Source of the DNA: a virus
Length of the DNA: 20,531 nt
Direction: 5' to 3' (one strand)
IMG/VR virus record: IMGVR_UViG_3300037247_000443
Coordinates: 1-20,531 of that record
Shown: positions 396 through 19,749 of the stretch, piece by piece
Numbering within the stretch: the first letter of the stretch is position 1
Layout: each line of letters starts with the position of its first letter
The notes under the pieces: model-generated
Told to the model about the DNA's origin: nothing
Seen by the model: only the letters and a program-made list of their open reading frames with translations
The model's database searches: none
Position numbers and translations under genes: made by a program

Positions 396-1277
396 TTACC
401 GACCACGACGTTTGCTCGGAGCGGTTGCATAATGTTGAGGTGATGTTTGTGCAGGTCCTTTTATGCGACTGAGAAATGTTGATCGATCCATAGGTGGTTC
501 GACTTTCTTTTTTGTAGTTTTTGCAAATTTTGACCGTGCTTCCCTATCACCTACTATGGGAACCTCTTGCCAACGTTCTTCAGCTTGACGAGCCTGCCGA
601 CGAAATCGTGGATCTTTACGAAACTCAGCCTCAGCTTCTTTTTGAGAGTTTGCTGAGATTGTTTTAGAATGTGACCAACCGTTACCCATCGCGTGAAGCG
701 TGAACGATGACTTTGCCTCTCGAACAACACCTCCTTCTCTTTTACTCTTAACTCTCCAATCATATTGGCCGCCGCCGGTGGAGAAGTCATCAACTACCTT
801 ATGAATAATCACTTCCGGCGCATCAGTGCTTAGATTTGGGCCCTTAATTTTTACTTTATATCCTTTCTTAACTAATTCACCACCTAGATCAGACATCATC
901 CTCCGATTTAGACCTGGTAGATAGTGAGTTCGTGCTCGTCCTTCTTGAAGCTGGTCATCTTTCATCAGTAATACTGCTTGAAACTGACCGTTAGGAAGGT
1001 CTACGATGTGAGTGCTAGTGACGCCAGGCATTTGTGAAATATCCTTAGCCATTTGTTCTGCTTCGGGCTTGGTCCTCACTGCTTGAAGCTTTACTTGCTT
1101 AAACTTTGTTGCTTCGTTAAGTTCTTTTCCCTTCGCAGCAAATGTCACAGCTTCGTTGTAAGCCTTAAACGTGCATTGCTGACCGTTATAGTTACAAGCT
1201 CTCCAATAGCCGCTCGATAGTTTCCAAGTTTTGCCTCGGAAGCTACCACCGGCACCACGATAAGAGCTATAAAGCAT
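396..1277 (-). CDS. Unrecognised basic protein between sheath and tube genes
   Basis: A 293-residue protein with no family I recognise. Its ATG follows the TAA of the preceding gene directly (TAAATG), so translation is probably coupled. The N-terminal 55 residues contain GKTWKLSSGYWRACNYNG and then EAVTFAAKG. This pattern (W, K-L-S, W-x-A, aromatic, A-x-x-F-A, K-G) is faintly like the repeated module of the DUF3008-like protein at 16650-17735. The middle (about 155-215) has WRVKSKREGGVVREAKSSF, likely beta-rich. The last 45 residues are strongly basic and end SKRRGR. Lying between sheath and tube genes suggests a virion or tail-assembly role, but that is inference from position only. Confidence 0.8.
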   Translation of the reverse strand: MLYSSYRGAGGSFRGKTWKLSSGYWRACNYNGQQCTFKAYNEAVTFAAKGKELNEATKFKQVKLQAVRTKPEAEQMAKDISQMPGVTSTHIVDLPNGQFQAVLLMKDDQLQEGRARTHYLPGLNRRMMSDLGGELVKKGYKVKIKGPNLSTDAPEVIIHKVVDDFSTGGGQYDWRVKSKREGGVVREAKSSFTLHAMGNGWSHSKTISANSQKEAEAEFRKDPRFRRQARQAEERWQEVPIVGDREARSKFAKTTKKKVEPPMDRSTFLSRIKGPAQTSPQHYATAPSKRRGR

Positions 1278-4284: not shown

Positions 4285-5631
4285 TTACGGTAGGAAACCT
4301 TCCATACTAGCACTTACGTAAGTGTGGACCGATAAGATCTCCTCTTCCGACAATTCTCTAGGCCACCAACCATGGTACGAGAATGAACCAGAAAACACCG
4401 AAGGGGATGGGGCTTCAAGGAGCGATCCAAGCGAAAAGTTAGTGCTTATTTCCGGCATGGTAATATTAAAGCTCTTGCTCACAGTTGAAACCAGAACACC
4501 GTTTTTATATGCCTTTTGCTTTGCTTCTCCGTCTGGTCCTACTGTATATGCAATAGTCTGCCACTCACCATATGACGCAGTAAGTTGCATTCCACCAGAT
4601 GGTTCTCCTCCTGTTGATGAAGTTACAAAGTAGTCGAACGTCGAAGCAGAATAATTAAGTCTAATTCCTACTGATCCTGAAACTTGACCGAGAACGGAAA
4701 TACCTGTATCTGCTACACCTTCGTATGGCTTGACTGCTACGAAAATAGTATGTTCCCAATCCGAACCAGTATCAAAGCTCCAACCTATTGCGTTGCCGGT
4801 TTGACTGGTGCGCAATCGACCATTAATTACATCTATCCGAGGTGGACCGGTTTCTAAAGTACTGCCTGTTCCGAGAAATTCCTGGTCGAAAGCGTGAATA
4901 AGTTCCCACACATCTTCCGTCGTACCTGGGGTTGGGGACCAAAATAGTCCAGCACCGGAAACAACTAATTCTACAACTACGGGCTCTGAATATTCCCAAA
5001 TTCTAATTAATCCTGCACTTCCAGCTCCACCGCGGCCGAGAACTGCTCCGGATCCACCTGCACCAAACAAAGATGCATCTCTTGCTAACGGTTGATTTGG
5101 TAGTTTAGTAGAAACTCCTGGACCACCAGCCCCAAAGAATCCATCTGCTCCATCTCCTGAGATCTTGCGCTTGTGTGTGGTTTCGTCTAGATATTTGAAT
5201 CCACGTCCGCCGACCGTGCCATCTAGTTTTACTTCTCCAACACCGTCCGCCGCAACTCCACCGGCGCCACCCTTTGGTGCTGCGCCTCCTTGTCCGCCAG
5301 ATCCTCCTTTAGCCAAACAGAATGATGCAGAATCAAACCATGTATCTTGTCCTACTGAACCGGTGTTTTGATCTCTAGTTCTTGGATTTCCCCAACCACC
5401 TGCCCCTCCATCTCCTACTTGAACAGCATAAGGACCTGGAATTACGGATCCTGATGGAATTACTTCATTAGAATATGCTCCAGCTCCGCCTCCGCCTGCA
5501 ATTCCTGTTCCTCCGGAAGTTCCGCCTCCGCCTGCTCCGCCACCGATACACTCAATAAACAGAGCTTCAGTATCGCTATAGGCAGCATACGAGGTTGTTC
5601 CCGATACGATTGTTACTTTACGTAATGCCAT
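4285..5631 (-). CDS. Glycine-rich protein fused to a LamG-like lectin domain, putative adhesin
   Basis: A 448-residue two-part protein. Residues 1-215 are glycine-rich, with blocks such as CIGGGAGGGGTSGGTGI, LAKGGSGGQGGAAPKGG and GDGADGFFGAGGPG, ending GSAGLIRIWEYSE. This half is clearly paralogous to the whole 219-residue protein at 9304-9963. Residues 225-448 look like a LamG/concanavalin A-like beta-sandwich: HTIFVAVKPYEG, then WQTIAYTVGPDGEAKQKAYK and NGVLVSTVS, then a closing FSYHGWWPRELSEEEILSVH. Glycine-rich domains form polyglycine-helix adhesin tips in phages such as T4-like S16 (gp38). Binding host surface sugar is therefore a reasonable inference, not shown. A GGAG site precedes the ATG. 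Confidence 0.85.
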   Translation of the reverse strand: MALRKVTIVSGTTSYAAYSDTEALFIECIGGGAGGGGTSGGTGIAGGGGAGAYSNEVIPSGSVIPGPYAVQVGDGGAGGWGNPRTRDQNTGSVGQDTWFDSASFCLAKGGSGGQGGAAPKGGAGGVAADGVGEVKLDGTVGGRGFKYLDETTHKRKISGDGADGFFGAGGPGVSTKLPNQPLARDASLFGAGGSGAVLGRGGAGSAGLIRIWEYSEPVVVELVVSGAGLFWSPTPGTTEDVWELIHAFDQEFLGTGSTLETGPPRIDVINGRLRTSQTGNAIGWSFDTGSDWEHTIFVAVKPYEGVADTGISVLGQVSGSVGIRLNYSASTFDYFVTSSTGGEPSGGMQLTASYGEWQTIAYTVGPDGEAKQKAYKNGVLVSTVSKSFNITMPEISTNFSLGSLLEAPSPSVFSGSFSYHGWWPRELSEEEILSVHTYVSASMEGFLP

Positions 5632-9303: not shown

Positions 9304-9963
9304 TTAATCTGAATACTCCCAAACTCTGATCAGTCCTGCACTTCCAGGACCACCACGATCTCGGTTTGCACCGCCGCCACCGGATCCATACAGAGATCCG
9401 CTTCTTGCTAGTGGGTGACCTAGAACTTTGCTATTAATGCCTGGGGCGCCGCCGCCAAAGAATCCATCTGCTCCATCTCCTGACTGAGCCTGTTTGCGAG
9501 TAGAAGGATCTTGATACTGAAATCCTACTGTACCGGATGCGCCATCTACTTTCAAACTTCCAGTTCCTAAACTAGCAAGGCCTCCACCTCCGCCCTTCGG
9601 AGATGCTGCTCCTTGTCCACCGGAGCCTCCTTTAGCCAAACATCTTGACGCAGAAGGTTCAAACCACGTATCCGATCCTGCTGAACCGGTATTATAATCT
9701 TGGCGGGTTGCAGTTCCCAAACCACCACCTCCTCCGGCTCCTACAGAACAAGACAATGACCCTCCACTTTCACTTACAGATCCTGACGGAATGAAGAGTG
9801 CGGAATATGCTCCACCTCCGCCTCCGCCTGAAATTCCTAATCCTGAAGCGCCTCCACCGCCACCACCTCCGCCTAAACATTCAATGTATAAAGCTGACGT
9901 GCTGGAACCTGTAGCGAATGAACCAGTGCCTTGGTATATATTTGTTATTCTCTCTAATGGCAT
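9304..9963 (-). CDS. Glycine-rich adhesin-like protein
   Basis: A 219-residue glycine-rich protein, with blocks ECLGGGGGGGGASGLGISGG, LAKGGSGGQGAASPKGGGGG and GDGADGFFGGGAPG, ending GSAGLIRVWEYSD. It is a clear paralogue of residues 1-215 of the glycine-rich/LamG fusion at 4285-5631. They share the order TALYIECxGGG, NTGSxGxDTWF, LAKGGSGGQG, GDGADGFFG and GSAGLIR-WEYS. It is therefore that domain standing alone without a LamG partner. Glycine-rich repeats of this kind form stacked polyglycine helices in some phage fibre-tip adhesins, so a host-binding or decoration role is inferred. A GGAGG site lies upstream of the ATG. It sits directly upstream of the gp13-like neck gene. Confidence 0.82.
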   Translation of the reverse strand: MPLERITNIYQGTGSFATGSSTSALYIECLGGGGGGGGASGLGISGGGGGGAYSALFIPSGSVSESGGSLSCSVGAGGGGGLGTATRQDYNTGSAGSDTWFEPSASRCLAKGGSGGQGAASPKGGGGGLASLGTGSLKVDGASGTVGFQYQDPSTRKQAQSGDGADGFFGGGAPGINSKVLGHPLARSGSLYGSGGGGANRDRGGPGSAGLIRVWEYSD

Positions 9964-10545: not shown

Positions 10546-12222
10546 TTATAGTCGAGTTAGACCCTCAACAAGAATACGACCGTAGAACTCTGGTCGAACA
10601 ATCTTCTTAGCGTAACGAGTCAAGACGCCTCTACGTGGAGTAAAGTTGTCAGGATCGTATACAAGAGGTGTCATTACTAGAGGGACGTAAGGTGCGTACA
10701 CCGCGCCGGTCTCTAGGAAGTTAGATCCCTTGTATCCAAGAAGGATAACGTTCGTTAACATATACGGATTCTTGTAAACCGTGTAACGGTTCTGGAAGGA
10801 ACCGACCTGGGTTACTCCAGCTGCATACTTCATTCGGTCACCGTCAGTCTCTACCGTGAAACCAGGAATGGTTTCAAGGATCGTCGAAACGTCAGGCGAA
10901 CAAACTAGGAAGTTTGCGCCACCACGAAGGGTGAGCTGGTGAATCTTGTTGCTTACCTTCTGGATCTTCTGACCCAAAGTCTCAAACCAAGTTTGATTGG
11001 TCCAAGCCTGTGCTGCAAGGTTAGCATCATTCTGGAAGTTGCCTGTCACGCCGTTAAAAATTCTAGCGATTGTTACAGACCAATAATCCGTTGTCTGTGC
11101 ATTGATGATAAGCATGTCCAGAATTTCAAGATCGATTTCAAGTGAGATATACTCACTCAACATCGCCGTCAACTCTGCCTCAGCGTCAATGCTGTGATAA
11201 GCGTTAAGGTCCTGTGCAAGTTCCGGAGTCCAAACAGCCTTCAACTTACGAGTCTTAGCTACGATTGGAATGCTCTTGAGCTCTAAGTCAATCTCTGGAA
11301 TACCAAGAGATGCCTGTGCTGTTGCACTTGAGTTTACAAGCTCCGAACGATCGTCCTCGAAGTCGCCTCGGGTTGAATCCGATGGCTGTGCGTGATATAG
11401 AACACTGGTGATAATAGCTTCATCATTTGAACCAGTGTCACTTCCAACGAATACAATAGTTCCACCGCCCTGCGTGCCACTTAGGAACGTATATTCAGGT
11501 AGCCAACCGTCAAGCTCGACGGATGCTGACATAGGAACGAATGCTCGAATGCCCTCAAAGTCCGGACGAGTGAAGTCGCCTACTGCTACCTCGTAGTATC
11601 TCAAGTTAGGAAGAGTTGCTACGACGGATTCGTTGAAGTTAACTGAGGCTGAAGTAACTGATGCAGATGATGCGAAATCATTCTGCGTTGCGGTCTGATC
11701 GTTGATGGAATAGCCCCACGCTCCATCACCATACAATCCGCCGGTTGGTACTACTGATGCAGATGGGAATAGTGCTCCCTTGTCACTCGTCTTTGAAATA
11801 CCGAATACCGAATCGCCAGATGTTCTTGGCAACTTAGTAGTTCCATACTTGAAGTCCATGAAGAAGATTAGACCAGAAGGAAGATTCATAGGCTGAATGC
11901 TTACGAACTCCTTAGCTGCAATCTCACCAAAGACCTTTCGAACGAGAGGAAGTGCAACACCTGCCCACTGCTCACCCGAACCTGCTACGCCGACTGCAAT
12001 ACCGGCAGAGGTTGGGTTTGTGGTCGTGCTTTCGTCAATTAGCTGACGGGCCTGGTTCTCAAGGAGAACGGCCATGCCGTGACGCTCATTGTCACCGTCA
12101 AGTCCTTCTAGAAGGCCGGTTGGGCCCCATTTGCCGGTGAGCGCACGTGTCTGTTGAAGCAGAACTGCACGCGGCGTCTGCGCATCAGCCATTAATTGAC
12201 CAAGATTAATTTCACCACTCAT
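10546..12222 (-). CDS. gp23: T4 gp23-like major capsid protein (precursor)
   Basis: Main HK97-fold shell protein of the phage head. Length is 558 residues (T4 gp23 is 521). Family-typical stretches include LVRKVFGEIAAKEFVSIQPM, NLPSGLIFFMDFKYGT, LKAVWTPELAQDLNAYHSID, LEIDLEILDMLI and the end RYAKKIVRPEFYGRILVEGL. The N-terminal 64 residues look like the removable propeptide. Sites fitting the gp21-type [LI]-x-E rule are LLE (37-39), LLE (53-55) and IDE (62-64); the last is nearly where T4 gp23 is cut (residue 65). AGAGGA lies 7 bases before the ATG. It follows the scaffold gene by 25 bases and is closed by the terminator at 10491-10518. Confidence 0.97.
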   Translation of the reverse strand: MSGEINLGQLMADAQTPRAVLLQQTRALTGKWGPTGLLEGLDGDNERHGMAVLLENQARQLIDESTTTNPTSAGIAVGVAGSGEQWAGVALPLVRKVFGEIAAKEFVSIQPMNLPSGLIFFMDFKYGTTKLPRTSGDSVFGISKTSDKGALFPSASVVPTGGLYGDGAWGYSINDQTATQNDFASSASVTSASVNFNESVVATLPNLRYYEVAVGDFTRPDFEGIRAFVPMSASVELDGWLPEYTFLSGTQGGGTIVFVGSDTGSNDEAIITSVLYHAQPSDSTRGDFEDDRSELVNSSATAQASLGIPEIDLELKSIPIVAKTRKLKAVWTPELAQDLNAYHSIDAEAELTAMLSEYISLEIDLEILDMLIINAQTTDYWSVTIARIFNGVTGNFQNDANLAAQAWTNQTWFETLGQKIQKVSNKIHQLTLRGGANFLVCSPDVSTILETIPGFTVETDGDRMKYAAGVTQVGSFQNRYTVYKNPYMLTNVILLGYKGSNFLETGAVYAPYVPLVMTPLVYDPDNFTPRRGVLTRYAKKIVRPEFYGRILVEGLTRL

Positions 12223-12247: not shown

Positions 12248-13729
12248 TTAGCTTTTAATTCCTGCGAGCTTCTGGAATCGTGCGGCTAAAGCTGCACCTT
12301 CTGCAAGAACGGTTGGTACTATTTCGCCTGTATTAGGCGTGACCTTCCGTCTTGATCGTGTGCTGCCGACGGCTCTTGAAGCTAGCCCCTCGGTAATCGT
12401 TCTCTTACGAGAAACTGGCTTACCTCGGAATGCCTCCGCGAGTGTTGCAAATACCAACTTAGCCTCGCGAACGGTTGTTGCTCTGTCAAATCCCTCTACA
12501 ACACGCATCTTCTGACGAACGTCCATATTATATGACTTGAACAATTTGTTCGTAAATAGCAACTTCGCGTTGAGTAGATTTACTTCGTTGAGCTTACTAC
12601 GCAGGTATCGAATAGCGTCCCGGTATTCTTTCAGCTCACTTCTAAGAGAAGTAACTTCGTACTGTACTTTGTCGTCGTTCTCCTCATCTTCGATCTCCTT
12701 TAGAATTTCTTCCAAGTCGATTTCATCGTCATCTTCATCCCCAAACTGTTCAGAGATTGCGTCTGTCTGCTTATCGCCTTCTCCCTGAGTAAAGGATGAG
12801 TCTGCTGTTACAGATGCGTCCTTCTCACCACCCTCGCCGGGGCCGTGTCCGTCAGATACTTCTGCGTCGTTCTGTTCCAACACTGGCTCTTCCTCTTCTT
12901 CATCACCAAATTCCATGCCAGCATCAATTGGCTCTTCTTCACCATAGTCGTCCATTTCGTCGTCGCCCATCATATCAGCTTCGAGCTCGGCGATAATTGC
13001 TTCTAGGTCAAGGTCACGATCACCTTCATCGTCAAATTCATCTTCACCACCCATTTCTGGTCCCATTTCACCACCACCCATTTCTGGTTCCATTTCACCA
13101 CCACCTAATTCTGGTTCCATTTCACCACCACCTAATTCTGGTCCCATACCACCACCTAATTCTGGTGCCATTTCGCCACCACCCATTTCGGGTGCCATTT
13201 CCTCTTCATCGTCAGCGCCAAACGGATCCTCTTCATCATCATCTTCGAAGATTCCTTCTCTAACAGGAGTGCCTGCAGGTTGCTGCAGACCTTCGTTATC
13301 AGTGTCGCCGGAAGTAGTTGCGGCGGAAGCAGCGGTTGCTGGTTCCTTTGGACTGGAAGTACCATACTGCTGAGTTGGCTCCGTTGCGATAGCCGAACTA
13401 TCTAGGCCAACGTCGCTATCAGGTGCATCATCAAGTGCTTCTGTGGTGACATCTTGATCACCAGTAAACGAGGACTTCTCCACCTTCTCTGCGTTCTTCG
13501 AGCCGCCTTCGCCAGGACCGTGACCGTCAGATACTTCTGCATCGTTCAGTTCATCAAGATCTTCCTCGTCACCATAATCGGTTTCGTTTCTAAGACGGGT
13601 AGACAACATTGAGGTGAGGTGCGGAGTAAATGCCTCTTCTAGAGCTGCCTTTGCATTAGCGAGTGCGGTCTCTCGGACTGCCTTTGCATCTGCAATTGCT
13701 TCTCTTAATAGTTTATTCCTTCGTGCCAT
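12248..13729 (-). CDS. gp22: T4 gp22-like prohead core scaffolding protein, enlarged and acidic
   Basis: Internal scaffold around which the capsid assembles and which the prohead protease then destroys. It is 493 residues, far longer than T4 gp22 (about 269). The C-terminal third (about 356-440) carries the family pattern: long helices with LKEYRDAIRYLRSKLNEVNL, LNAKLLFTNKLFK, KMRVVEGFDRATTVREAKLV and the ending RFQKLAGIKS. The N-terminus is helical (MARRNKLLREAIADAKAVRE). Between them lies an extremely acidic region with six 9-residue Met/Pro/Glu/Gly repeats (177-229) and two copies of NDAEVSDGHGPGEGG (62-76 and 287-301). It is placed directly before the capsid gene, as in T4. GAGGA precedes the ATG. 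Confidence 0.9.
   Translation of the reverse strand: MARRNKLLREAIADAKAVRETALANAKAALEEAFTPHLTSMLSTRLRNETDYGDEEDLDELNDAEVSDGHGPGEGGSKNAEKVEKSSFTGDQDVTTEALDDAPDSDVGLDSSAIATEPTQQYGTSSPKEPATAASAATTSGDTDNEGLQQPAGTPVREGIFEDDDEEDPFGADDEEEMAPEMGGGEMAPELGGGMGPELGGGEMEPELGGGEMEPEMGGGEMGPEMGGEDEFDDEGDRDLDLEAIIAELEADMMGDDEMDDYGEEEPIDAGMEFGDEEEEEPVLEQNDAEVSDGHGPGEGGEKDASVTADSSFTQGEGDKQTDAISEQFGDEDDDEIDLEEILKEIEDEENDDKVQYEVTSLRSELKEYRDAIRYLRSKLNEVNLLNAKLLFTNKLFKSYNMDVRQKMRVVEGFDRATTVREAKLVFATLAEAFRGKPVSRKRTITEGLASRAVGSTRSRRKVTPNTGEIVPTVLAEGAALAARFQKLAGIKS
13043..13201 (-). repeat. In-frame 27-bp tandem repeats in the scaffold gene
   Basis: Six consecutive units encode variants of EM(A/E/G)PE(L/M)GGG; one unit lacks its first Glu. 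At the DNA level the 27-base units are near-identical in the middle of the array. The array keeps frame and probably expands and contracts by slippage. The repeats add methionine, glutamate and flexible glycine to an already acidic linker. Confidence 0.9.
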
Positions 13730-13909: not shown

Positions 13910-14182
13910 TCAGTCTTGAGCGTAATATTGGCCGGATATACTTAAAAAAGAGTGTCCACCAGCATCAGCTATCTGTGCATAAATCTGGCCACCATCACTC
14001 CAAAATGAAGGACGAGCTTGTGGGTGTTGGTCTTTAAGTTTTTTTAGAAACGTAGCCCATTCCTCAGAACTCACGCGTCTCTTCGCATCAGATATAGTAA
14101 TGCGCCGGCGCGGACCAGCTTCATCTATACGACTTGCCTCAGTAAGCAAGTTATTTCTAAGAAACTTTCTAAGTCGGAACAT
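13910..14182 (-). CDS. Small protein with LLTE N-terminal motif
   Basis: A 90-residue unrecognised protein, the last gene before the terminator at 13859-13902. The N-terminus MFRLRKFLRNNLLTEASRID is a basic amphipathic helix ending in LTE, which fits the [LI]-x-E cleavage rule of gp21-type proteases. The remainder has EEWATFLKKLKDQHPQARPS and a C-terminal beta-like GGQIYAQIADAGGHSFLSIS. No strong Shine-Dalgarno sequence precedes its ATG, which is one base past the previous stop codon, so translation is probably coupled. A head-internal protein is possible, by inference from the motif and position. Confidence 0.72.
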   Translation of the reverse strand: MFRLRKFLRNNLLTEASRIDEAGPRRRITISDAKRRVSSEEWATFLKKLKDQHPQARPSFWSDGGQIYAQIADAGGHSFLSISGQYYAQD

Positions 14183-14183
14183 T

Positions 14184-14408
14184 TTAATTTTTGACTATTA
14201 CTTTGGATCGATTGATATTCATTGTTGCGCCTTGAGCAAGTCTAACTCGCACGCTTGCGGCCGCTGTCCATAGTACCTGTCCAGGTCCATGCGGCGTCTC
14301 AACTTTGTCGCCTCTCTTAGGTTTCGATTCGTTCAGTTTGATTCCGCTCTCCTTCAGGACGCGTCGAACCTCTTCTCGAACGATTTGTCTTACTTCTCGC
14401 TCTCGCAT
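14184..14408 (-). CDS. Small protein with IVREEV helix and possible SH3-like barrel, overlapping bS21
   Basis: A 74-residue protein whose first 31 codons overlap the end of the bS21 gene in another frame. It starts MREREVRQIVREEVRRVLKE, the clearest example of the V-R-E-E helix shared by several proteins here. LKE and LNES follow, the first an [LI]-x-E site. The C-terminal half (KRGDKVETPHGPGQVLWTA, then SVRVRLAQGATMNINRSKVI) has the alternating pattern of a small SH3/KOW-like barrel. That is a fold guess, not a family match. The shared helix argues that this frame is real. Confidence 0.72.
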   Translation of the reverse strand: MREREVRQIVREEVRRVLKESGIKLNESKPKRGDKVETPHGPGQVLWTAAASVRVRLAQGATMNINRSKVIVKN

Positions 14409-14592
14409 TTGCCTCTCTCCTTCTACGTTTGAATGCCTCTTGCCGTTTCAATTTGCGTTTCAAAGACGGCTTAAGATGATATTCGTGTTTTCTCAGGTCT
14501 TCGAGTATACCTGCTCGCTTAACTCGTTTCTTAAACTCAACCAACGCTCGACCAAACGCGGCGTCACCGTCTCCTCGTACATCAATCTGCAT
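14317..14592 (-). CDS. rpsU: Ribosomal protein bS21, phage-encoded
   Basis: A homologue of bacterial small-subunit protein bS21, which sits near the mRNA exit/anti-Shine-Dalgarno region and helps translation initiation. Residues 1-66 match the family: MQIDVRGDGDAAFGRALVEF (start strand and first helix), KKRVKRAGILEDLRKHEYHL, then KPSLKRKLKRQEAFKRRRRE. Compare E. coli bS21 '[25 protein letters not shown]'. Cellular bS21 is about 70 residues; this reads to 91 because its frame stays open through the start of the next gene. AAGG lies about 5 bases before the ATG. Phage-borne bS21 is known from aquatic phages and could join host ribosomes to favour phage mRNA. It lies in the head-assembly block, so expression is probably late. 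Confidence 0.92.
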   Translation of the reverse strand: MQIDVRGDGDAAFGRALVEFKKRVKRAGILEDLRKHEYHLKPSLKRKLKRQEAFKRRRREANARARSKTNRSRRGSTRPEGERNQTERIET

Positions 14593-16649: not shown

Positions 16650-17735
16650 TTACTCAGTTGCGGCACTAACTCTATCCTCAAATTCATCCCTACTCTCACC
16701 CTTACGCATTGTAATACCATGCTTAGCGGCGAGAACATCTAGCTTTGCTGCACGTTCTCCTTCAGCTGCGGGATCATATGCTTCTGTTCGTGCCACTCGT
16801 CTTTCCATTAAAACTTCTCGCACCATACCCCGAACATATTCACGAACTTTTTGAATACCTTCATTGCGACCTTTAGACTTTCTATCTTCCGGGTAATCAT
16901 CATATGCATCTCTATAACTAGCAACTCCAGCAACACGTTGAGACGGCGGAACATCATGTTTGGATGTTCTTACCCAATCCTTATCAGCATCTTTACCTTC
17001 AGGTCGCATGCGATTCTTAGCAAAGTCCCCTTGCACATACGAAGCTGGACTACCCTTATGAGTAGAATCTGCAAATCGTATTGCTGTTGGTTTATCTGGA
17101 AAATAATCCACACGGCCACTTCTTGCTCTTGCGCCCCAACCGGGTTTTGCTAGACGGTTATTAGGACCTGACTGCCAATAACTTCCCTTTGAATGAATTC
17201 TCCATTCCCAACTTGAAGCATCATATCCTCGCGGCGCCCGACCTTTCTTTTTCTGAACACTCGTTTCGTCCTTCGCTTCACGAAGGCCCTCAGTCTTACC
17301 TTTAATAAAATTTCCTGCTACGTAGGAAGATGGTCCACCTTTATGCGTATAATTTGCAAAGTCTTGGGCGTCGGACACTCCCCAAAAATAATCTATTTGC
17401 CCACTCTTTGCGCGCGCTCCCCAATTTTCAGCTTTTGTTGGTCCCGAAAGTTTCCAATAACTTCCCTTTGAGTGGATTCTCGAATCCCAAGCGTTTTTAT
17501 GACCGCGGTATCGTTGTGGCATAGGCTTTGCTTGGGCTACGGGGGTTTCGTCCTTAGCTTCACTTATTTTCTTTGGAAGTCCCTTGTGCTTTGTTGAGGC
17601 AAAATCTTTGGCGTCCTTCTTCTTTATTGACTTTGCTGTTTTGGCAACTTCAGGACTGGCTGCTTTGCCGCCCTTCTTTTGTGCGGCATGTACCATTCCC
17701 ATAAATTTCTGTTGTGCTACTGATTTTGCTGGCAT
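16650..17735 (-). CDS. DUF3008-like protein with a duplicated 90-residue module
   Basis: A 361-residue protein. Residues 1-57 match the DUF3008 pattern: MPAKSVAQQKFMGMVHAAQK, then KKKDAKDFASTKHKGLPKKI. DUF3008 proteins are small, of unknown function, and usually consist of this domain alone. Here it is followed by two tandem copies of an unfamiliar module (58-145 and 152-241) and a polar linker. After that is a helix VREYVRGMVREVLMERR (297-313) of the V-R-E type, and an end domain LDVLAAKHGITMRKGESRDE. The motif FAxx[KT]HKGxP occurs three times, once in DUF3008 and once in each module. It follows the prohead protease by 3 bases, with GAGGAAG overlapping the protease stop. A head-internal or processed protein is a guess. 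Confidence 0.82.
   Translation of the reverse strand: MPAKSVAQQKFMGMVHAAQKKGGKAASPEVAKTAKSIKKKDAKDFASTKHKGLPKKISEAKDETPVAQAKPMPQRYRGHKNAWDSRIHSKGSYWKLSGPTKAENWGARAKSGQIDYFWGVSDAQDFANYTHKGGPSSYVAGNFIKGKTEGLREAKDETSVQKKKGRAPRGYDASSWEWRIHSKGSYWQSGPNNRLAKPGWGARARSGRVDYFPDKPTAIRFADSTHKGSPASYVQGDFAKNRMRPEGKDADKDWVRTSKHDVPPSQRVAGVASYRDAYDDYPEDRKSKGRNEGIQKVREYVRGMVREVLMERRVARTEAYDPAAEGERAAKLDVLAAKHGITMRKGESRDEFEDRVSAATE
17013..17564 (-). repeat. Tandem protein-level duplication inside the DUF3008-like gene
   Basis: Copy A (about 17564-17301) and copy B (about 17282-17013) encode about 90 residues each. Both run EAKDET(P/S)V, then RIHSKGSYW, then WGARA(K/R)SG(Q/R)(I/V)DYF, then FA(N/D)xTHKGxPxSYVxG(N/D)F. 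At the DNA level they remain similar (for example the RIHSKGSYW codons), but they have diverged, so the duplication is not recent. Confidence 0.88.
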
Positions 17736-17738
17736 ATT

Positions 17739-18335
17739 TTACTTCCTCGTCACTTCGCTCATGAAATCATACACAAGACTGTTAACTCGACACCAGACGC
17801 CACATTTAGCTCCAGGTAAAGCCGATTCATTAATGAATGCTCCCTCCGTTGAGGGGTTCGAAACTACATCAAAGCAGATAAGGTTGAAATCCTCTTGAAC
17901 TTCAACAGTATCTTCGTCCAATTCTTTAATCGAACCAAGACCACGACTAGAAATTCCCAACCTAATGTTGTTCTTCAACAGTTCCTTGAGAATATTGCCC
18001 GATGGAGTGGATAAGACTTCTATGTTGCCCATCAAATTCTCACCATTGAACCAAAGCTCAGTAAGATTGTGAGAGACATTCTTAAGGTTAACGACTGGGC
18101 TTTCTGGATGGTCTAGTTCGCCAAGTGCTCGTCGTTCTTTAATGAATTGTTTGTATCTCACGGCTTCCCGTTGTAAAATCGGCATAGGATAAATTCGGCC
18201 GTTCTGGTTCTTTTGGTTCGCCGTTTGGAGAACCACATTCTTAAGAATAAGCGGGCCGCCCTTACCTAATGCCTCGGTAATCATTTGACGGTCGTAGGTC
18301 AAATATGTGAAATCTGTTAATATCTGTCCAGTCAT
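17739..18335 (-). CDS. gp21: T4 gp21-like prohead maturation protease
   Basis: A serine protease (peptidase S77-type) that degrades the scaffold and trims head proteins after [LI]-x-E sites during prohead maturation. It is 198 residues (T4 gp21 is about 212). The catalytic His motif GELDHPESPVVNL has His76, and the catalytic Ser motif GISSRGLGS has Ser129/130. The order of N-terminal NGRIYPMPIL, SHNLTELWFNGENLMG, STPSGNILKELL and FDVVSNPSTEGAFI is typical of the family. ITE (19-21) and INE (168-170) could be self-processing sites. A strong AAGGAGG overlaps the previous stop codon. No gp22-type gene follows directly; the DUF3008-like gene does. Confidence 0.95.
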   Translation of the reverse strand: MTGQILTDFTYLTYDRQMITEALGKGGPLILKNVVLQTANQKNQNGRIYPMPILQREAVRYKQFIKERRALGELDHPESPVVNLKNVSHNLTELWFNGENLMGNIEVLSTPSGNILKELLKNNIRLGISSRGLGSIKELDEDTVEVQEDFNLICFDVVSNPSTEGAFINESALPGAKCGVWCRVNSLVYDFMSEVTRK

Positions 18336-18347
18336 AGTTATACCTCC

Positions 18348-18923
18348 TTAGGCGGATCCGGTTCCTACGGTAATGCGCCAGATAGTATTATCAACTGGTG
18401 GCGACTCGAAGAGCGATGCCGTTGGCGCTGCAAACGATGCAGTAGGTCCGGTCGGAGCTTGACTTGCTGTTAGAAACGGTATCAAGGCTGACCCGGTAAT
18501 TGGAACCGCAAGGCTGCTCGTTGGGCCAGGAGTTATCCACTCCCCCTTCCAACCTCCAGGCTTTAATGAGAAGGATGGTTCGAAAAATGGAACCCCAGGA
18601 CTAACAATCACTGGAAATCCTACATCACTGGCCGATACTGGTGGATCAATACTCAATAGTGTTTTCTTTTCAATTATTGTTCCGCTTAACGGTTCAAAAC
18701 TAGAAGATATATTGTATTTTCTAGTTTTTGACTTCCTTAATGCGGCTGATGGTTGAACGCCATCTGTTCCAGCTGGTCTGATGGTTCGACCTGTGCTTCC
18801 AGTGTAACCATCGAAATCTTCAAAGCCACCAACCAGGTCTACAGATATAATAAAGGATCCAGACGCAACAAGAATGGCGTCTCGCGCTCCTCTACCAATT
18901 ACTTCTAATACTTCGTTTGCCAT
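18348..18923 (-). CDS. Unrecognised beta-rich protein upstream of the protease
   Basis: A 191-residue protein with low charge and many Ser, Thr, Pro and Gly residues. It starts MANEVLEVIGRGARDAILVA and continues SGSFIISVDLVGGFEDFDGY; it ends IWRITVGTGSA. Alternating hydrophobic/polar residues suggest a beta structure. A Pro/Ala/Ser-rich stretch near 150-172 (ASQAPTGPTASFAAPTASLF) looks like a linker. Its stop codon lies in the Shine-Dalgarno sequence of the protease gene, so the two are coupled. A minor virion protein is plausible from position and composition, but I recognise no family. Confidence 0.75.
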   Translation of the reverse strand: MANEVLEVIGRGARDAILVASGSFIISVDLVGGFEDFDGYTGSTGRTIRPAGTDGVQPSAALRKSKTRKYNISSSFEPLSGTIIEKKTLLSIDPPVSASDVGFPVIVSPGVPFFEPSFSLKPGGWKGEWITPGPTSSLAVPITGSALIPFLTASQAPTGPTASFAAPTASLFESPPVDNTIWRITVGTGSA

Positions 18924-18927
18924 CTGT

Positions 18928-19749
18928 TTATCCTCTCATGTTCCGAATCGTTTGAGAGATTCGGTGCATTCGTGATTCAATTTTCATTAGTGCATTGTTG
19001 GTTCTTTGCCACAACCCACTATTGGGAATTCCCATCTCTTTCTTGAGTCGAGAGCTTCGTTTTACAACCTTTTCCATTTCTCTGAGTTGTTTATTAATCT
19101 CAGAGATGACTGCGCCAATCTTCATTCGCGGCGTCTGAGTTTCGTCATTGCGCCATGCGTAATAAGGATCTCCACCTTCATTTACAGGAAGTGTGTATTC
19201 TCCACGTTCATCCCAATTAGGATCTCCACCAATCATTCCAGTTTTAGAAAACTCTATTGCCTGATCACGACTCCTTAATACTACTTTTTCTGTTCCCTTC
19301 GGATTGACTCCAATCCACTTTCTACCATCACTGGATTGCGTTATAGTTCCTGCGCCGCCAGACCATGGACCTCTTTCATTTATTGATTCTTGCACTTTCT
19401 TCTTTTTCTTACTAGACACAGGCTCTTTTGTAGAAAATGCGTATGGTGTTCCAAACCCACCGACTCCACCCGTTCCAGTCATTTCGTCTATTTCTTGCTC
19501 GACCACACGTCGAACAGCTTCTCTAATTCCTTTGGACTCAACAAACCCTTTCAATGTTTGGACAAGTTCTCGTACGCCTCTTCCTCTTTCCCTAACCTCT
19601 TCCCACGCCAACATCCATTGTCCATTATCAAAAACATCTACATCTGTTCTCTTGTCTTTGGAAACCCACTCATCTACATCTTCACGCTCATAACGAATAG
19701 TAAATTTCAATCTCTTTAAAACTTGCGCAATATTTTTTGGAGTTATCAT
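18928..19749 (-). CDS. Unrecognised head-region protein with TGTGGVGGFGTPYAF motif
   Basis: A 273-residue protein. The N-terminal part holds a helix GIREAVRRVVEQEIDE (74-89) of the V-R-x-x-[VI]-x-E-E kind shared by other proteins here. It is followed at once by MTGTGGVGGFGTPYAFSTK (90-108). From memory, unchecked, this helix-plus-'TGxGxVxGxxTPxAF' combination recurs in hypothetical proteins near head genes of T4-like environmental phages. A lysine run (114-118), a domain with GRKWIGVNPKGTEKVVLRSR and a C-terminal coiled-coil (about 213-273) follow. The ATG overlaps the previous stop codon (TAATG). A head-core role is inferred only. Confidence 0.76.
   Translation of the reverse strand: MITPKNIAQVLKRLKFTIRYEREDVDEWVSKDKRTDVDVFDNGQWMLAWEEVRERGRGVRELVQTLKGFVESKGIREAVRRVVEQEIDEMTGTGGVGGFGTPYAFSTKEPVSSKKKKKVQESINERGPWSGGAGTITQSSDGRKWIGVNPKGTEKVVLRSRDQAIEFSKTGMIGGDPNWDERGEYTLPVNEGGDPYYAWRNDETQTPRMKIGAVISEINKQLREMEKVVKRSSRLKKEMGIPNSGLWQRTNNALMKIESRMHRISQTIRNMRG

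What the first reader, a model, noticed from the sequence alone, without database searches (positions are those of the whole stretch)
16650..17735. DUF3008 domain extended by a duplicated module that reuses its FAxx[KT]HKGxP motif
The motif appears at residues 45-54, 126-135 and 221-230 with the same internal spacing: FASTKHKGLP, FANYTHKGGP and FADSTHKGSP. The DUF3008 end and the new 90-residue modules may share one ancient element, or converge on one binding function. DUF3008 usually stands alone, so this fusion may give a first handle on its role; its position next to the prohead protease hints at the head.
Basis: partly seen in the sequence, partly recalled or inferred. Interest (0 to 1): 0.6.

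Follow-up and report, generated by a model that had tools for sequence, protein, structure and literature searches.

The report
Protease-cut cassette protein in phage head
A gene beside the head-maturation protease of a T4-related phage looks like a string of small positively charged protein beads (a DUF3008 bead plus two copies of another) joined by the short sequence that protease cuts, which suggests that this unstudied domain is swappable cargo packed inside phage heads.

Summary
In detail: the 361-aa ORF (16650-17735, minus strand) carries FAxx[KT]HKGxP at residues 45-54, 126-135 and 221-230, in a DUF3008-like N-terminus and two tandem ~95-aa modules. The shared motif is a short match at a helix end in two different predicted folds and is not conserved across module relatives, so common ancestry is not supported. 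The seams explain the gene better. Both repeat units start right after a T4 gp21-type prohead-protease site (ISE|AKDET, LRE|AKDET), and the protease gene is 3 bases upstream. In a relative with 94-95% identical capsid and protease, this gene and a neighbour differ by whole modules whose edges lie at xxE sites. In all 52 distinct internal DUF3008 contexts from viral contigs (24 upstream clusters), plus 3 from bacterial bins, the preceding residues are [LIV]xE, with E where stand-alone copies have the start Met. A stand-alone DUF3008 protein is reported in S-SCSM1 virions. Best reading: a cassette-built internal head protein, cut into beads by the prohead protease, comparable to T4 IP proteins. 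Cleavage and function of the beads are inferred, not shown.

The parts
16650..17735 (-). 361-aa cassette protein: DUF3008-like domain, two tandem modules, middle segment, amphipathic helix, C-terminal YDPAA cassette
   Evidence: dN/dS 0.05-0.22 against L086 and Shine-Dalgarno-like GAGGAAG upstream of the ATG
17559..17735 (-). DUF3008-like domain, residues 1-59 (pI 10.3), ending in ISE
17574..17603 (-). motif copy 1, FASTKHKGLP (residues 45-54)
17559..17567 (-). putative prohead-protease site ISE|AKDET (residues 57-59)
   Evidence: ITE in L086, where a 57-aa module is inserted
17277..17558 (-). module 1 (AKDET...GLRE, residues 60-153)
17331..17360 (-). motif copy 2, FANYTHKGGP (residues 126-135)
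17277..17285 (-). putative prohead-protease site LRE|AKDET (residues 151-153)
16974..17276 (-). module 2 (residues 154-254 as modelled)
17046..17075 (-). motif copy 3, FADSTHKGSP (residues 221-230)
16803..16856 (-). amphipathic helix-like segment IQKVREYVRGMVREVLME (residues 294-311), ending in LME|R; a similar segment is N-terminal in a 340-aa protein of L172
   Evidence: sequence
16653..16781 (-). C-terminal YDPAA cassette (residues 319-361); a homologue sits in a different head gene of L172, after INE|
   Evidence: E 9.3e-5
17739..18335 (-). prohead core serine protease (T4 gp21 / peptidase S77)
   Evidence: E 2.5e-24; phrog_207, E 1.8e-48
18928..19749 (-). neighbouring 273-aa head-cluster gene with cassette insertion and exchange at IRE|A, INE|R and VNE|G; the last site is empty in L172 (MNE|GGDPYYAW)
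10546..12222 (-). gp23-type major capsid protein
   Evidence: phrog_138, E 8.9e-71
12031..12039 (-). inferred capsid maturation site IDE|S (residues 62-64), matching [LIV]xE in 56 of 56 clade capsid proteins
12248..13729 (-). scaffold-type acidic core protein with LRE|A after residue 10 (gp22 position and character)
   Evidence: position before the capsid gene
1113..1277 (-). short diverged copy of the module, ending LNE|A, at the start of the 293-aa ORF 396-1277
   Evidence: (6.4e-14 with a profile that includes it)
14184..14408 (-). small head-cluster ORF: helix tag, then LKE|S and LNE|S, then a KOW-like bead
13910..14182 (-). small head-cluster ORF with N-terminal LTE|A and IDE|A

Best explanation
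The gene encodes an internal head (core/cargo) protein built as beads on a string. Several small, mostly basic cassettes (DUF3008, two copies of a W...W-A-x-G...YF...A..FA module, a C-terminal YDPAA cassette) and an amphipathic helix are joined by prohead-protease sites of the form [LIV]xE. Proposed order of events: the precursor joins the prohead core; the gp21-type protease encoded just upstream cuts after xxE during head maturation; the basic beads stay in the capsid with the DNA and are probably ejected into the host, as T4 IP proteins are. Cassettes are gained, lost and swapped at these same sites. Shown here: architecture, position, site placement, cassette turnover. Reported elsewhere: a DUF3008 protein in virions of one isolate. 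Inferred: cleavage, retention in the capsid, ejection and any activity in the host.
For: Both repeat units begin immediately after ISE and LRE. The gp21-type protease is the next gene upstream. The presumed capsid maturation site in 56 distinct clade capsid proteins is [LIV]xE, P1' mostly A, N or S, in line with the published T4 L/I-X-E (PMC9026906). L086 has 94-95% identical protease and capsid but differs here by whole modules edged at xxE; in the neighbour gene the window, L086 and L172 show filled, differently filled and empty versions of one site. Internal DUF3008: 18 of 18 unbiased contexts end in [LIV]xE against a 2.4% background; 52 of 52 in 24 clusters overall; 3 of 3 more from bacterial bins. 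E takes the place of the start Met of stand-alone copies. At the C-edge, GLPxx[VI]xE occurs in 26 of 47, other offsets in 0-6 of 47. The YDPAA cassette sits in a different head gene in L172. DUF3008 and both modules are basic, pI 9.7-10.3. S-SCSM1 ORF93 (DUF3008) is annotated as a virion protein in a genome whose virion proteins were called by mass spectrometry.
Against: No cleavage product has been seen for this protein or any DUF3008 protein. The published T4 P3 residues are L/I; V at P3 rests on 4 of 56 capsid sites and on the DUF3008 seams. K at P1', found at most internal DUF3008 seams, was not seen at the capsid sites. Between residues 154 and 293 the only xxE candidates have a non-hydrophobic P3 (RPE, RNE). 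S-SCSM1 DUF3008 is a separate short protein, so its virion presence does not show processing. Rhizobiales chromosomes carry stand-alone DUF3008, so the domain is not purely a phage head part. The long module itself was found only in two closely related records. The C-terminal cassette is not basic (pI 5.9).
Confidence: 0.68

Rival explanations
1. It is a scaffold/core protein that shapes the prohead: the beads are core building blocks and cleavage at xxE serves to destroy and clear them, as with T4 gp22, gp67 and gp68, rather than to release cargo.
For: It lies between gp21 and the gp22/gp23-type genes. T4 core proteins are cut into many fragments and mostly leave the head (PMC9026906).
Against: The window's own scaffold-type protein is strongly acidic by sequence, while DUF3008 and the modules are basic. 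The gene is not universal: L087 and L172 lack it at this place. A DUF3008 protein stays in mature virions in S-SCSM1.
Confidence: 0.15
2. The xxE seams are not cut. They are junctions where recombination joins domains, or parts of short helices that bind the core, and the protein stays whole as a structural head or neck component.
For: No cleavage has been shown. Recombination at a conserved seam could also give repeated junctions. S-SZBM1 carries DUF3008 at the start of a 707-aa protein near neck and terminase genes.
Against: Twenty-four clusters of upstream sequence converge on [LIV]xE; recombination alone does not predict convergence on P3 and P1 identities. E coincides with the Met of stand-alone copies. 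In this phage the protease gene is adjacent.
Confidence: 0.14
3. One reading: the DUF3008 end and the module share one ancient binding element, FAxx[KT]HKGxP, and that shared function explains the fusion.
For: Local match with module 1: 9 of 14 identical, 8 of 5000 shuffles. The motif is the most conserved end of DUF3008, also in Rhizobiales. In both models it is the end of the last helix plus a loop.
Against: Predicted folds differ. The motif is absent or altered in 5 of 7 module copies. The profile match is E 27 or worse. DUF3008 is fused to many other partners.
Confidence: 0.05

Closest known systems
T4 internal proteins IPI, IPII, IPIII and Alt (capsid targeting sequence cut by gp21)
   Same: Precursors with a gp21-type site [LI]xE, variable between relatives; works like them if the beads are packed and ejected
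   Different: T4 IPs carry one N-terminal ~10-aa propeptide; here several different beads share one ORF with sites between them, and no sequence homology was found
Polyvalent proteins of phages and plasmids (PMC5512222)
   Same: Multidomain, mosaic, thought to be delivered with the DNA, likened by the authors to polyproteins
   Different: Those are proposed to be released by embedded peptidase domains; here the candidate protease is the separate prohead protease and the domains are small and without recognised enzymes
Giant-phage ejection and inner-body proteins (SPN3US gp53/gp54, phiKZ; PMC10052503, PMC9026906)
   Same: Internal head proteins cut by a gp21-like protease at a three-residue xxE motif
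   Different: Motif is A-X-E or S/A-X-E, and cuts mainly remove N-terminal propeptides; no cassette exchange at sites is described in the passages read
DUF3008 (PF11450)
   Same: The N-terminal 56 residues align with the whole profile
   Different: Bacterial copies seen here stand alone; in phages it is a portable bead with [LIV]xE before it when internal

Membership tests
DUF3008 (PF11450) | Alignment over the full 57-position profile | tested here: met
   Profile 1-56 on residues 3-56
DUF3008 (PF11450) | Pfam gathering score of 24 bits | tested here: not met
   16.2 bits whole protein, 22.5 bits domain alone; a 73% identical relative, S-SCSM1 ORF93, scores 30.7. Hence called DUF3008-like
T4-type internal head protein (IP) | gp21-type [LI]xE site in the precursor | tested here: met
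   ISE|A and LRE|A at repeat starts
T4-type internal head protein (IP) | N-terminal capsid targeting sequence of about 10 residues ending in the cut site | tested here: not met
   The ORF starts directly with DUF3008; the nearest equivalent is the internal helix at residues 294-311. So: works like an IP, not filed as one
T4-type internal head protein (IP) | Sequence homology to IPI, IPII or IPIII | tested here: inconclusive
   No such Pfam, PHROG or NCBIfam match; T4 IPs themselves were not compared
T4-type internal head protein (IP) | Present in the mature head and ejected | not testable with these tools
   Only indirect: a DUF3008 protein is a virion protein of S-SCSM1
Polyvalent proteins | Embedded peptidase or recognised conflict-related enzyme domain | tested here: not met
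   No such domain in Pfam, PHROGs or NCBIfam
DUF2188 | Profile match of the module | tested here: inconclusive
   One of 7 members at E 0.04; 12.7 bits against a cut-off of 22 in the relative's record

The most novel reading that the evidence does not exclude
T4-superfamily phages build cargo polyproteins from interchangeable beads whose seams are prohead-protease sites, with DUF3008 as a standard bead. The head-maturation protease thus doubles as a polyprotein processor that releases a swappable, injected payload, and the [LIV]xE seam gives a rule for finding such payloads in uncultured phages.
Probability: 0.4. Interest if true: 0.75.

Novelty: new variant of a known kind. Interest (0 to 1): 0.58.

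Why it matters
No paper in the held open library mentions DUF3008, yet it occurs in hundreds of phage contigs. The seam rule places it among internal head proteins, gives a testable role, and offers a sequence-only way to delimit beads in otherwise unreadable head proteins. If the beads are ejected, they are candidates for first-minute effects on the host, as T4 IPI and IPIII are (PMC9958956, PMC9391042). It also shows head cargo genes turning over by whole domains while capsid and protease barely change.

Tried and rejected
Wider search for the module: viral contigs, genome contigs and phage records with a related short module gave nothing beyond the window and L086, so its wider distribution is unknown. 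One phage search failed on wrong coordinates. Foldseek and VIA-align for the module and Foldseek for DUF3008 gave no usable match (absence shows nothing). DUF2188 as a name for the module: too weak. PF08116 hit to ORF 396-1277: chance (9 residues). Profile comparison of the motif regions was done as a shuffle test and an HMM search; no homology beyond 14-16 residues. The contig set was chosen with a query holding VEEK, so it is biased for the seam; the and sets are not and are quoted separately. A loose pattern for the TTGxVGGY cassette of the neighbour gene gave 10 hits of which one is spurious; 8 of the other 9 are preceded by [LIV]xE, supportive but small.

Full report
What is there. Residues 3-56 cover the DUF3008 profile: below Pfam's cut-off on their own (16.2 bits, or 22.5 for the domain alone, against 24), but 73% identical to S-SCSM1 ORF93, which passes at 30.7 bits. 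Two tandem modules follow, 54% identical. The frame is under purifying selection against its nearest relative. The gene starts 3 bases after the end of a gp21-type prohead protease gene (S77, E 2.5e-24), and a scaffold-type gene and a gp23-type capsid gene lie downstream.

Is the motif one element? Module 1 matches the DUF3008 end at 9 of 14 residues (8 of 5000 shuffles), module 2 more weakly (191 of 5000). AlphaFold2 gives DUF3008 three helices (pLDDT 80) and the module beta-beta-beta-alpha (pLDDT 58, core 73-78). In both, the motif is the end of the last helix plus a loop, but the folds differ. Among seven module copies, THKGxP is complete only in the two window copies, although a THKGGP also occurs just past a frame break in L086. 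Common descent is therefore not supported; convergence on a binding loop is not excluded.

The seams. Each repeat unit starts right after ISE or LRE, with AKDET. T4 gp21 cuts after L/I-X-E (PMC9026906). In this phage clade the capsid maturation site, inferred from position, is [LIV]xE in 56 of 56 distinct proteins (the search pattern also allowed M, F and A, and none occurred).

Relatives. L086 shares 95% of the capsid protein and 94% of the protease, but its version of the gene has an extra 57-aa module inserted between ITE| and |AKDET, a segment of about 80 residues beginning GGPGSGP and ending MNE|DKDET, and a C-terminal extension beyond ATE, through VVE|. The neighbouring gene (18928-19749) behaves alike: a KOW-like insert after IRE|A in L086, and before GGDPYYAW three states, namely one cassette in the window, another in L086, none in L172 (MNE|GGDPYYAW). 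The YDPAA cassette at the end of the window's ORF sits in a different head gene in L172, after INE| (E 9.3e-5). So head genes of relatives differ by whole cassettes edged at xxE.

DUF3008 in general. When DUF3008 is internal, the residues before it are [LIV]xE: 18 of 18 in contigs found with a query that could not select for it (background 2.4%); 52 of 52 with the biased set added, in 24 clusters of upstream sequence, ten of which hold an unbiased member; and 3 of 3 in bacterial bins. The E sits where stand-alone copies have the initiator Met (EKAVSKAQQ against MPAVSKAQQ), as expected if cutting after E and removing Met give equivalent ends. The C-edge GLPxx[VI]xE occurs in 26 of 47 contexts. 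In the capsid clade, DUF3008 lies between protease and capsid genes in 10 of 12 loci that hold all three. S-SCSM1 ORF93 (69 aa, DUF3008) is annotated as a virion protein, in a genome whose virion proteins were called by mass spectrometry (PMC9602691).

Mechanism. I conclude that this is a cassette-built internal head protein: precursor in the prohead core, cut at xxE seams by the adjacent protease, basic beads (pI 9.7-10.3) left with the DNA and probably ejected. Cutting, retention, ejection and activity are inferences. Rivals are a core scaffold cleared by cutting, or an uncut fusion with recombination seams.

Novelty. T4 internal proteins with targeting sequences, giant-phage ejection proteins and polyvalent proteins are known. 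New here are the multi-bead arrangement with prohead-protease seams, cassette turnover at those seams, and a role proposed for DUF3008, on which no paper was found. The literature library is partial, so prior description elsewhere is possible.

Noticed in passing
L086:11481-11790: The relative's gene breaks frame inside its third long module, where a short near-repeat encoding FANYTH / FAGYTHKGG is joined out of frame; it could be a real deletion between module copies or a metagenome assembly artefact.
   Followed up: partly
window 14317-14592 (-): A ribosomal protein S21 homologue (PF01165, E 1.3e-12) sits inside the head gene cluster; S21-like genes are also in the clusters of L086, L087, L172 and Microcystis phage Mel-JY01.
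   Followed up: no
L082:1194-2423 (S-SCSM1 ORF91): The virion-borne NMNAT-type protein begins MKSFLQFLKE|A, and S-SZBM1_194 has an internal TYREFIAE|G; both look like the T4 capsid targeting sequence, which would explain how such enzymes enter cyanophage heads.
   Followed up: partly
window 396-1277 (-): A 293-aa ORF downstream of the tail sheath gene begins with a short diverged module copy and has LNE|A, LQE|G and VRE|A seams, so it looks like a second bead protein outside the head cluster.
   Followed up: partly
window 18348-18923 (-) and L086:8643-9989: The gene before the protease is 191 aa here but 448 aa in L086, where it is filled with TGSVEVVAEP-type repeats.
   Followed up: no
window 4285-5631 and 9304-9963 (-): Two glycine-rich ORFs are paralogues (73-81% DNA identity in blocks), one with an extra C-terminal domain.
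   Followed up: no
window 13018-13203: 27-base tandem repeats encode an EMxPE(L/M)GGG run in the scaffold-type protein; the run differs in L086.
   Followed up: no
L264, L265, L266: Agrobacterium and Rhizobium chromosomes carry short stand-alone DUF3008 proteins keeping MPAKSxAQQ and FASTKHKxLP, so the domain also has a cellular role or origin.
   Followed up: partly
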